DNA of 64,000 nucleotides from an uncultured Paenibacillaceae bacterium. Lineage in GTDB: Bacteria > Bacillota > Bacilli > Paenibacillales > K13. The notes beneath the pieces were generated by a model. It was not told the DNA's origin. It saw only the letters and a list, made by a program, of their open reading frames with translations, and did not search any database. The DNA lies in contig CAJXLT010000001.1 in NCBI GenBank assembly GCA_913056365.1, forward strand, positions 434,001 through 498,000. Reading direction: 5' to 3'. Shown in pieces: positions 11,645-18,967 of the stretch. Made by a program: the position numbers and the translations under genes. How positions within the stretch are numbered: position 1 is the first letter of the stretch; every line of letters starts with the position of its first letter.

Positions 11645-12856
11645 ATGAATCTACGATGGAGATTGGCGTTGCTAACGGCTTCGCTGCTGGTGTTGCTGCT
11701 ATGGATGCCGCTGGTAGGGACGGAAGCTGTATCAGCCGAACCGGAAGAAGAGGGCAATGGTATTCGGGAGAAGATAATCGAACAGCAGGCCAAGCAGCTG
11801 CCGACAGATCAAGTGGAAGCGTATTGGGATAACCTTATGAATGAATACAGTGAGCATTTGCCAGGCAAGGACCCGCCAACCTTAATGGAGATGATCGTAC
11901 CTGGCGGGGAAGGACTTGGTGCGCAGGAGGTACTGCAAGGCCTGGTGCGAATGCTGTTGTTTGAAATTGTGTACAACGGCAAGCTGCTTGTGACGATCGT
12001 CATCTTGACGATCTTCAGCATGCTGATGGAAACGTTGCAAGGCGCATTCGAGAAGCCGAATGTGAGCAAGATCGCGTATGCCATTACTTACATTGTCCTC
12101 ATGATTATCGCTGTGAATAGCTTCAGTGTGGCGATCGGCTATGCGAAAGAAGCGATAGCTGGCATGGTTCACTTCATGATTGCGATGATTCCGTTGCTGC
12201 TAACGGTGTTGGCTTCGATGGGCAATGTAGTGACGGTGTCCGTGATGCATCCGCTCATTGTATTTATGATCCATACGATCGGTACGCTCATCTACTCGGT
12301 AGTATTTCCGTTATTGTTCTTTTCCGCAGTGTTACATATCGTCAGCTCGCTATCGGATAAGTACAAGGTAACACATTTAGCTATTTTGCTGCGAAATATT
12401 AGCGTTGGCATACTGGGAGTTTGTTTGACTGTTTTTCTCGGCGTCATCTCTGTACAGGGTGTATCGGCAGGAACAACAGACGGTGTGACTTTGCGAACGG
12501 CCAAATATGTTACGGGCAATTTCGTTCCTGTTGTCGGGCGCATGCTATCTGATGCTTCCGATACAGTGATCGGCGCATCGCTGTTAGTGAAGAACGCGAT
12601 TGGCTTGTTTGGCGTTATCGTCATCGTGCTGCTTTGCATATTCCCTGCTTTGAAAATATTAGCGCTTGCGCTCATTTACAATTTGTCAGCGGCAGTGCTC
12701 CAGCCTCTTGGAGACAGTCCGATTATGCTCGGCTTGCGAACGATTGGCCAAAGTATGATTTATGTATTCGCTGCATTGGCTTCTGTGGGATTGATGTTTT
12801 TCTTTGCGATTACGATCATGATTGCTGCAGGCAATGTGACGGTAATGATGCGCTAG
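11645..12856 (+). CDS. spoIIIAE: Stage III sporulation protein AE
   Basis: A 403-residue polytopic membrane protein. A signal peptide (residues 1-30, LLTASLLVLLLWMPLVGTEAVSA) is followed by a charged extracytoplasmic stretch and about seven or eight hydrophobic helices from residue 100 on. It is thought to be a multi-pass core subunit of the SpoIIIA channel. GTGGAGG precedes the ATG by 6 bases. Its stop codon is followed within five bases by a tandem hairpin array that separates it from spoIIIAF by 351 bases, an unusual gap in this operon. Confidence 0.96.
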   Translation: MNLRWRLALLTASLLVLLLWMPLVGTEAVSAEPEEEGNGIREKIIEQQAKQLPTDQVEAYWDNLMNEYSEHLPGKDPPTLMEMIVPGGEGLGAQEVLQGLVRMLLFEIVYNGKLLVTIVILTIFSMLMETLQGAFEKPNVSKIAYAITYIVLMIIAVNSFSVAIGYAKEAIAGMVHFMIAMIPLLLTVLASMGNVVTVSVMHPLIVFMIHTIGTLIYSVVFPLLFFSAVLHIVSSLSDKYKVTHLAILLRNISVGILGVCLTVFLGVISVQGVSAGTTDGVTLRTAKYVTGNFVPVVGRMLSDASDTVIGASLLVKNAIGLFGVIVIVLLCIFPALKILALALIYNLSAAVLQPLGDSPIMLGLRTIGQSMIYVFAALASVGLMFFFAITIMIAAGNVTVMMR

Positions 12857-12860
12857 GATA

Positions 12861-13180
12861 CCCACAAAAGTGACGTAAAGCTCCGAAGTAGATTCAAGTA
12901 CTTTTGTGGGGCGCGGATTGAAGGTTTCTGTCAAAAGTGAAGTAAAGCTCCGAAGTAGATTCAAGTACTTTTGCGGGGCCCGAAGTTCATCCCACGAAAG
13001 TGACGTTAAACTCCGAAGTGAATTCAAGTACTTTCGTGGGGCCCGGATTGAAGGTTTCTGGCAAAAGTGACGTTAAACTCCGAAGTGAATTCAAGTACTT
13101 TTGTGGGGCGCGGATTGAAGGTTTCTGTCAAAAGTGAAGTGAAGCTCCGAAGTAGATTCAAGTACTTTCGCGGGGCCCGG
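12861..13180. repeat. Five-unit tandem hairpin repeat between spoIIIAE and spoIIIAF
   Basis: Five units start near 12861, 12929, 12991, 13059 and 13127 (spacing 68, 62, 68, 68). In each, a left arm like CCCACAAAAGT is followed by a loop with the core CTCCGAAGT and TTCAAGT, then a right arm like ACTTTTGTGGG. Unit 3 has G in the left arm and C in the right arm where unit 1 has A and T, so pairing is kept. Units 2, 4 and 5 have shorter left arms (CAAAAGT). The spacer GCGCGGATTGAAGGTTTCTG or a near copy recurs. No open frame of note lies here. A related pair is found near 18855-18951. Confidence 0.9.
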
Positions 13181-13207
13181 ATAAACTGAACAGTTGGAGG
13201 GAGGGGG

Positions 13208-13969
13208 ATGATCGCATGGTTAAGCGAATGGTTGAAGGAAATCGTCGTCATCGTACTGCTCGCCGTATTCGTAGATTTGGTTCTGCCCAACAACGCCATG
13301 CAGCGGTATGTCAAAATCGTACTCAGCTTACTCATTTTACTCGCAATCTTGTCCCCTCTGGTCGCGCTTCTCCAGTCTGGGGAAAGATGGGATGCTTGGC
13401 TCCAAGCAAGCAGCGATACCGAGTCTGGCAAGAGCTTGTCTGGGACCGGGGAGATGCCGGCGCTCCATGCCATATCGATAGAAGCGGAACAGATGATCGA
13501 GGCGCGAAACCGTCAAGCCCAGGAGCTCGCACAGCTCCGACTGGAAGGAGCTATAGTCCGAAGCTTGGAGGAGTCGCTTGCGATTCGCAAGGCAGAGGTG
13601 TCCGCAGCACTGCGGATCGGTGCCTCCCCCGAAGAAGTCCTACTAGAAGAATTGGGTGTACGCTTATGGCCCCATGCAGAAGCAGTGGCGGCGGAGGACC
13701 TCCAGCAGAGCGGGCAACCCGCGGCATTCCAGCCGATTGAACCGATTGCGCCAGTCACAGTTTCCATTCGGGAGGATCGACGAGAGGGCTTCAATACAGA
13801 CAGTGTACGGCAAGGTGATGTCCAATCTGGTCACGGAGCCGCAGATGATGCAACAGACCTTCAATCAGACGATATGGAGTCGCTTCAGCAAGGGGCGCTA
13901 ATCATAATAGAACAACAATTTGACATTCCGTCCGATAAGGTGCGGATCTCTGTGGAGGCAAGGAGGTGA
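13208..13969 (+). CDS. spoIIIAF: Stage III sporulation protein AF
   Basis: A 253-residue protein with two N-terminal hydrophobic helices (WLKEIVVIVLLAVFVDLVLP and YVKIVLSLLILLAILSPLVALL), as in the family. A long charged extracytoplasmic domain follows and ends IEQQFDIPSDKVRISVEARR, the usual C-terminal ring-building motif. The central region (residues 150-215) is Gln/Asp-rich and looks like a linker. GGAGGGAGGGGG precedes the ATG. It follows the hairpin array by 27 bases and its stop codon is embedded in the ribosome site of spoIIIAG. Confidence 0.93.
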   Translation: MIAWLSEWLKEIVVIVLLAVFVDLVLPNNAMQRYVKIVLSLLILLAILSPLVALLQSGERWDAWLQASSDTESGKSLSGTGEMPALHAISIEAEQMIEARNRQAQELAQLRLEGAIVRSLEESLAIRKAEVSAALRIGASPEEVLLEELGVRLWPHAEAVAAEDLQQSGQPAAFQPIEPIAPVTVSIREDRREGFNTDSVRQGDVQSGHGAADDATDLQSDDMESLQQGALIIIEQQFDIPSDKVRISVEARR

Positions 13970-18821: not shown

Positions 18822-18854
18822 ACGGGAACCCTTATAGATATAGCTTATGGAGAA

Positions 18855-18951
18855 AGCCACGAAGCATTCGCATCACTTTCGTGGGTATAATAACGGGCCC
18901 CGCGAAAGTAATAGGAGTAAGCTCCGAAGCATTCGCATCACTTTCGTGGGA
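18855..18951. repeat. Two diverged copies of the hairpin repeat upstream of nusB
   Basis: A right-hand half unit, CGAAGCATTCGCATCACTTT followed by CGTGGG, occurs twice, ending at about 18885 and 18951. The second copy is complete: left arm CCCCGCGAAAGT at about 18898-18909, loop core AAGCTCCGAAG, right arm ACTTTCGTGGG. The loop core and arms match the array at 12861-13180, while the loop's right half differs. TATAAT at 18886-18891 lies between the copies and is a candidate -10 for the nusB operon, with no convincing -35. Confidence 0.8.
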
Positions 18952-18967
18952 TTAGGATGGAGGCAGC

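What the first reader, a model, noticed from the sequence alone, without database searches (positions are those of the whole stretch)
12861..13180. Tandem hairpin repeats with compensating arm changes inside the spoIIIA operon
Five units of about 62-68 bases fill the gap between spoIIIAE and spoIIIAF, genes that are normally almost contiguous. Arms such as CCCACAAAAGT/ACTTTTGTGGG in unit 1 become CCCACGAAAGT/ACTTTCGTGGG in unit 3, a paired substitution that keeps the stem. Selection at the structure level, gene conversion or a hairpin-mobilised element are all possible. As RNA, the array could alter the ratio of AA-AE to AF-AH, the ring proteins.
Basis: seen in the sequence. Interest (0 to 1): 0.7.

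Follow-up and report, generated by a model that had tools for sequence, protein, structure and literature searches.

The report
Dispersed hairpin repeats docked at gene edges
The repeats between two spore-formation genes are one local burst of a small hairpin sequence that is scattered over this bacterium's genome and those of its relatives, and that nearly always sits with the same end against the start or the end of a gene, so it is probably a small spreading DNA element rather than a switch for the spore genes.

Summary
The array at 12861-13182 is real: five units with a period near 67 bp. Units 1 and 3 keep the full stem through a paired change; units 2, 4 and 5 have lost one outer arm. 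It is not specific to spoIIIA. A covariance model built from it finds 52 units in about 32 arrays in this genome, 57 in its one held congener, 32-92 in five other genomes of the order, and almost none in about 290 genomes sampled elsewhere in the phylum. The hairpin is supported by covariation and belongs to the strand antisense to spoIIIA (G-T wobbles outnumber A-C 96 to 9).
The surprising feature is placement. The 3' end of the structured strand abuts a gene edge: 37 of 109 arrays lie within 8 nt of a convergent gene's stop codon, 31 of 109 lie 17-38 nt before a start codon, against 11 for the 5' end. rRNA and 6S RNA ends are used too. The congener has one unit at the same spoIIIAE stop; other genera have none there. 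Arrays grow by local duplication and differ between close species.
Best reading: a REP-like, non-autonomous hairpin repeat of Paenibacillales with oriented placement and an unknown mobiliser. An effect on spoIIIA expression is untested.

The parts
12861..13182 (-). Tandem array of five repeat units; structured strand is minus, antisense to spoIIIA; its 3' end lies 4 nt from the spoIIIAE stop codon
   Evidence: TRF, cmsearch, sequence
12856..12917 (-). Unit 1 (3'-most on the structured strand): full 11-bp stem CCCACAAAAGT/ACTTTTGTGGG
   Evidence: 68.8 bits; fold z -4.1 and -4.4
12923..12984 (-). Unit 2: one outer arm lost (TTTTGAC instead of TTTTGTGGG), short stem
   Evidence: 51.5 bits; fold no better than shuffles
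12986..13047 (-). Unit 3: full stem with the paired change (CCCACGAAAGT/ACTTTCGTGGG)
   Evidence: 70.2 bits; fold z -6.3 on the minus strand
13053..13114 (-). Unit 4: outer arm partly lost
   Evidence: 45.3 bits; z -3.9 on minus, -0.1 on plus
13120..13181 (-). Unit 5 (5'-most on the structured strand): outer arm lost; near copy of unit 2 (59 of 62 identical)
   Evidence: 47.7 bits; identity; weak fold
11645..12856 (+). spoIIIAE, whose TAG stop (12854-12856) is the edge the array abuts
   Evidence: Pfam PF09546 E 4.7e-105
13208..13969 (+). spoIIIAF, downstream gene, with its own Shine-Dalgarno-like stretch at about 13195-13207
   Evidence: Pfam PF09581 E 7.4e-22; sequence
18892..18955 (+). Second array of the same family in the window: one full unit, 13 nt before the nusB start
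   Evidence: 73.6 bits; sequence; NusB Pfam
18827..18891 (+). 5'-truncated unit upstream of the nusB copy, directly after an intrinsic terminator
   Evidence: nhmmer match to model positions 23-61; sequence

Best explanation
The array is a local amplification of a short (about 55-63 nt), REP-like dispersed hairpin repeat of the order Paenibacillales. SHOWN: it is genome-wide; one strand carries a covarying 11-bp stem (consensus TCGGGCCCCGCGAAAGTAATCGGAATAAGCTTCGNAGCTTNNCTTCACTTTCGTGGGT); the 3' end of that strand abuts a gene edge (Shine-Dalgarno region of a co-directional gene, stop codon of a convergent gene, or the end of an rRNA or 6S RNA); sites are partly shared between species while units are gained, lost and 5'-truncated; units of one array resemble each other most. 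The congener has a single antisense unit at the spoIIIAE stop where this genome has five. INFERRED: that single unit predates the split of the two species and grew to five here, partly by duplication of a two-unit block; new sites are seeded by an unidentified activity that places the 3' end at a gene edge in a fixed orientation (or by oriented selection after random insertion); arrays then grow by slippage or unequal exchange and decay from the 5' side; and the spoIIIA array is a tolerated passenger with at most modest effects on mRNA stability or on AE-AF coupling.
For: 52 units in this genome, 57 in the congener, 32-92 in five others of the order; only order members, apart from two marginal hits (E 1.1e-4) in one other genome, among 299 sampled from the phylum. 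Covariation: 41 cells changed on both sides against 8.8 +/- 2.3 in shuffles. Strand: GT/TG 96 against AC/CA 9. Placement in four genomes, 109 arrays: 3' end within 8 nt of a stop in 37 and 17-38 nt before a start in 31; 5' end at comparable edges in 11; d3 < d5 in 78 of 106, Wilcoxon p = 2.4e-6. Antisense against the 23S rRNA 3' end in G000, G001 and G016 and sense before 16S rRNA in G057; before 6S RNA. The spoIIIAE site has one unit in the congener and none in 28 other genomes. 13 of about 31 arrays shared with the congener, with different copy numbers. Empty sites in close relatives. 3' units score better than 5' units in 34 of 47 arrays, p = 3e-5. Within-array identity 79% against 68%.
Against: No mobiliser was found: the Y1/RAYT family is absent from G000, G001, G016 and G025, which all have many copies. 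No clean target-site duplication was seen. The conserved G-T wobble, the strict orientation and the placement next to the ribosome-binding region would also fit a functional RNA. Gene edges come from a simple in-house gene caller, and only four genomes were scored.
Confidence: 0.6

Rival explanations
1. The repeat is a cis-acting RNA (translation or mRNA-stability element) recognised by a protein or ribonuclease. Tandem hairpins directly before the Shine-Dalgarno sequence, often just behind riboswitch or attenuator terminators, would set translation or protect mRNA from 5' decay; the antisense copies after stop codons would be a second use or remnants.
For: 31 of 109 arrays end 17-38 nt before a start. 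Arrays sit near or behind the pyrR attenuator, the purE purine riboswitch, a leuS T-box and a c-di-AMP riboswitch. Wobble asymmetry and covariation favour one RNA strand. A second family (R2) in genome G050 is before the Shine-Dalgarno in essentially all of 26 distinct arrays.
Against: 37 of 109 arrays are antisense to the adjacent gene, the majority in G016 and G039, so the structured strand is not in that gene's mRNA. Downstream genes share no function: tilS, purE, hisZ, pyrR, nusB, recQ, addB, alaS, lysS, rnmV and others (names by recognition of the proteins, NusB by Pfam). Sites are lost, halved or rearranged among close species with the gene intact. No Rfam family matches.
Confidence: 0.22
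2. A classical REP mobilised by a RAYT (REP-associated Y1 transposase), or an IS200/IS605-type non-autonomous element.
For: Short imperfect palindrome, extragenic, high copy number, clustered, close to stop codons, as for REPs (PMC2817692, PMC12306157).
Against: No PF01797 protein in G000, G001, G016 or G025 despite 32-68 copies; several genomes with many Y1 proteins have few copies. No unpaired GT(A/G)G head 5' of the hairpin; units are head-to-tail, not in alternating orientation.
Confidence: 0.08
3. A local regulatory element particular to the spoIIIA operon that sets the ratio of AA-AE to AF-AH.
For: It sits between AE and AF, the sense transcript can form two stable hairpins (units 1 and 3), and two other lineages also have repeats in this operon.
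Against: Genome-wide copies; one unit in the congener, none in other genera; no terminator or promoter signal; the stronger structure is on the antisense strand.
Confidence: 0.05

Closest known systems
REP / BIME sequences with RAYT (Gammaproteobacteria)
   Same: Short imperfect palindromes, extragenic, tens to hundreds of copies, clustered, often close to stop codons; many E. coli REPs lie within 15 nt of a stop codon and can lower translation (PMC12306157, citing earlier work)
   Different: No RAYT in the host, no unpaired GT(A/G)G head, head-to-tail arrays, fixed orientation with one end at starts as well as stops, restricted to Paenibacillales
bcr1-bcr18 repeats of the Bacillus cereus group
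   Same: Lineage-restricted dispersed repeats of a Firmicute with mobile-element traits; mobility linked to a TTTAT motif (PMC6542083)
   Different: bcr elements are 100-400 bp; sequences were not aligned here; strict docking at gene edges is not a described trait there (own knowledge)
Stem-loop families of other Firmicutes such as Bhal-1 and Clot-1 (PMC2267715)
   Same: About 74 nt, intergenic, conserved stem-loop, 19-36 copies
   Different: Other species; no oriented placement reported in the passages read; no sequence comparison made
MITEs
   Same: Short, non-coding, inverted-repeat, dispersed
   Different: No target-site duplication seen, no parent transposon found, much shorter

Membership tests
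REP (RAYT-associated) | Short palindromic extragenic repeat in many copies | tested here: met
   52 units, about 32 arrays, 11-bp stem
REP (RAYT-associated) | GT(A/G)G head directly 5' of the palindrome | tested here: not met
   5' end is TCGGG-CCCC; GTGGG occurs only as the paired 3' arm
REP (RAYT-associated) | Cognate Y1 transposase (PF01797) in the genome | tested here: not met
   None in G000 or G001
BIME | REPs in alternating orientation | tested here: not met
   Units within arrays are head-to-tail
MITE | Target-site duplication | tested here: inconclusive
   No duplication seen at sites compared with empty orthologues, but intergenic divergence blurs junctions
bcr repeats | Sequence homology to bcr1-18 | not tested
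   bcr sequences were not at hand; R1 not found outside the order apart from two marginal hits in one other genome
Known cis-regulatory RNA (Rfam) | Match to an Rfam model | tested here: not met
   No match over the repeats
Intrinsic terminator | GC-rich stem followed by a T-run | tested here: not met
   None in 12700-13300

The most novel reading that the evidence does not exclude
Paenibacillales carry several families of self-spreading hairpin repeats whose propagation is aimed at the edges of genes: a copy is laid down with its 3' end against the ribosome-binding region, a stop codon or a stable-RNA end, in one orientation, by an unknown (perhaps RNA- or single-strand-templated) route, and then grows there as a polar array.
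Probability: 0.25. Interest if true: 0.8.

Novelty: new variant of a known kind. Interest (0 to 1): 0.5.

Why it matters
Dispersed hairpin repeats are usually described only as intergenic. Here one end of the element marks gene edges with a precision of a few nucleotides and a fixed orientation, across genomes from three families of an order, and a second repeat family (R2) in a genome of a fourth shows the same habit at Shine-Dalgarno sites. That makes a concrete, testable question of how such repeats choose their sites and whether they alter translation start, translation end or rRNA maturation. For the spoIIIA operon itself it warns against reading the array as a dedicated regulator.

Tried and rejected
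RAYT/Y1 mobiliser: absent. Rfam families: none over the repeats. Plasmid, phage and viral-contig carriers: none. Terminator or promoter at the array: none. Preference of stop-adjacent copies for TAA/TAG over TGA: looked strong in the first genomes (0 of about 16), but with the full set 4 of 37 against about 25% background, so dropped. A shared regulon: downstream genes are functionally mixed. Target-site duplications: none recognisable. A first regular expression for units was wrong and was replaced by an HMM. Literature searches for a described Paenibacillus family found nothing.

Full report
OBSERVATION. Tandem Repeats Finder reports 12865-13182 with period 67 and also 12861-13182 with period 130; the core motif occurs five times in the window and not at all in 100 shuffles. 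It fills the gap between spoIIIAE and spoIIIAF, identified by Pfam. In 65 named genomes of Paenibacillus, Cohnella, Brevibacillus, Thermoactinomycetaceae and Bacillaceae in which the gap could be measured it is mostly 1-40 bp and at most 139 bp, so 351 bp is unusual. The paired change between units 1 and 3 is real. Units 2, 4 and 5, however, have lost one outer arm; units 2 and 5 fold no better than shuffled sequence.

A DISPERSED FAMILY. A search of the window's own genome with the array found 26 places. Units from these loci align without ambiguity and give the consensus, on the minus strand of the window, TCGGGCCCCGCGAAAGTAATnGGAATAAGCTTCGnAGCnTnnCTTCACTTTCGTGGGT, with an 11-bp outer stem. 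A covariance model (R1) finds 52 units in about 32 arrays in this genome, 57 in the only congener held, 32-68 in four genomes of another family (G008, G016, G021, G025) and 84-92 in G039 of a third. 38 of 61 genomes of the order have at least one match. In 299 genomes drawn from the phylum only order members matched, apart from two marginal hits in one other genome. The window holds a second array, before nusB at 18892-18955. The order is taken to be Paenibacillales because the nearest named spoIIIAE genes are those of Paenibacillus; the species itself is not named.

STRUCTURE AND STRAND. On 95 units from two genomes, 95.7% of stem cells pair, 6 of 11 pairs show changes on both sides, and every measure exceeds all 500 shuffles and all slid versions (the alignment was fitted to the model, which favours the structure). 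In the stem G-T is seen 96 times and A-C 9 times (69 of the G-T come from one conserved pair), so the strand written above is the one that keeps its pairing; this is the antisense strand in spoIIIA. The wobble is not universal: in G039 the stem is CCCCCAAAAGT/ACTTTTGGGGG without it. An unpaired G-run at the 5' end matches the length of the 3' G-run across variants: 3/3, 4/4 and 5/5 (Spearman 0.92; relatedness is not corrected for).

PLACEMENT. For 109 distinct arrays in G000, G001, G016 and G039, distances to the nearest predicted genes were taken from the last G of GTGGG and from the first G of the unit. The 3' end lies within 8 nt of the stop codon of a convergent gene in 37 arrays (of 51 whose downstream neighbour is a stop) and 17-38 nt before a start codon in 31 (of 56). 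The 5' end lies within 12 nt of a stop in 7 and within 40 nt of a start in 4. The same rule reaches stable RNAs: antisense, a few nt from the 3' end of 23S rRNA, in G000, G001 and G016 (the 23S identity of L133, L198 and L199 was read from the sequence, that of L139 from Rfam); sense, directly before 16S rRNA, in G057; and sense, 4-10 nt before 6S RNA, in G000 and G001. Several 5'-leader copies lie downstream of attenuators or riboswitches: pyrR, purE, leuS T-box and c-di-AMP (the pyrR match is just under Rfam's gathering score).

EVOLUTION OF THE SITE. The congener has exactly one unit after the spoIIIAE stop, in the same orientation; 28 other genomes of the order have no R1 unit there. G016 and G021 have R1 units further down the same operon, also antisense and against a stop. 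Units 1+2 and 4+5 of the window array are 117/129 identical and units 2 and 5 are 59/62 identical, which points to duplication of a two-unit block. In general, units of one locus are more alike than units of different loci (79% against 68%, no permutation of 2000 as high). 13 of about 31 arrays of this genome have an orthologous array in the congener, often with a different number of units. Among G016, G021, G008 and G025, whose flanking genes are often 90% identical or more, arrays are shortened, halved, extended or absent with the flanking gene intact; sites matching L190, L195 and L194b are empty in G021. The unit nearest the gene edge is the best preserved: it beats the far unit in 34 of 47 arrays (Wilcoxon p = 3e-5), and 5'-truncated remnants that keep CTTCACTTTCGTGGG are frequent.

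A SECOND FAMILY WITH THE SAME HABIT. Three genomes of genus g11 (G050, G026, G052) have a different tandem repeat in the spoIIIAE-AF gap. In G050 this repeat (R2) has 39 matches; the 26 distinct arrays read all end in ACAAAACT-TTTAGGAGG or a variant of it directly before a start codon (15-17 nt from arm to start in those measured; the script's motif was met in 25 of 26), before genes without a common function. R2 has no Rfam match. Oriented docking at gene edges is therefore not peculiar to one sequence family.

MECHANISM. The best single reading is a non-autonomous, REP-like repeat. Turnover of units and sites speaks for spread and decay rather than a conserved control element. What is not explained is the orientation rule. 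Either the unknown propagation step delivers the 3' end to gene edges, or only that orientation is tolerated next to a ribosome-binding region or a stop. An RNA role in the 5'-leader copies remains possible (confidence 0.22) and would fit strand asymmetry and covariation, but it does not account for the copies that are antisense to the adjacent gene. The spoIIIA array is most likely a passenger; an effect on AE-AF coupling through the hairpins of units 1 and 3 in the mRNA cannot be excluded.

COMPARISON WITH KNOWN KINDS. E. coli REPs are the closest analogue: extragenic palindromes, some within 15 nt of stop codons (PMC12306157). Two defining features fail here: the unpaired GT(A/G)G head and the RAYT transposase (PMC2817692). 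The bcr repeats of the B. cereus group (PMC6542083) and the stem-loop families of PMC2267715 are the closest in Firmicutes; their sequences were not compared. No paper describing this family was found in the open library, which omits most subscription journals.

Noticed in passing
window 18827-18957: A second array of the same family, sense, with its 3' end 13 nt before nusB, directly after the terminator of the upstream gene; the congener site lacks it.
   Followed up: yes
L275-L304 (genome G050): A separate tandem hairpin family (R2), read in 26 distinct arrays, ends at the Shine-Dalgarno sequence of the next gene in all of them, including spoIIIAF; arms ACAAAACT and AGTTTTGT alternate, so pairing partners are ambiguous.
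   Followed up: partly
L133, L139, L198, L199 and L072: Units lie antisense against the 3' end of 23S rRNA in three genomes and directly before 16S rRNA in another, where rRNA processing stems would be expected.
   Followed up: partly
L132 and L136: Units lie 4-10 nt upstream of the 6S RNA gene, where its promoter would be expected.
   Followed up: no
G016 loci L187, L188, L194, L205 and relatives: Long-loop variants of the repeat (about 109-150 nt) carry an inner CCAGTTCATCCA..GAACTGG hairpin.
   Followed up: no
L192 downstream flank (query 901-990): Another dispersed repeat (GGGTGTTTTCGTTTTCTACATGAGCACCGG...) with more than 25 places in G021.
   Followed up: no
all R1 loci: The unpaired 5' G-run, the C-run and the 3' G-run co-vary in length (3, 4 or 5), although only the last two pair in the hairpin.
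   Followed up: partly
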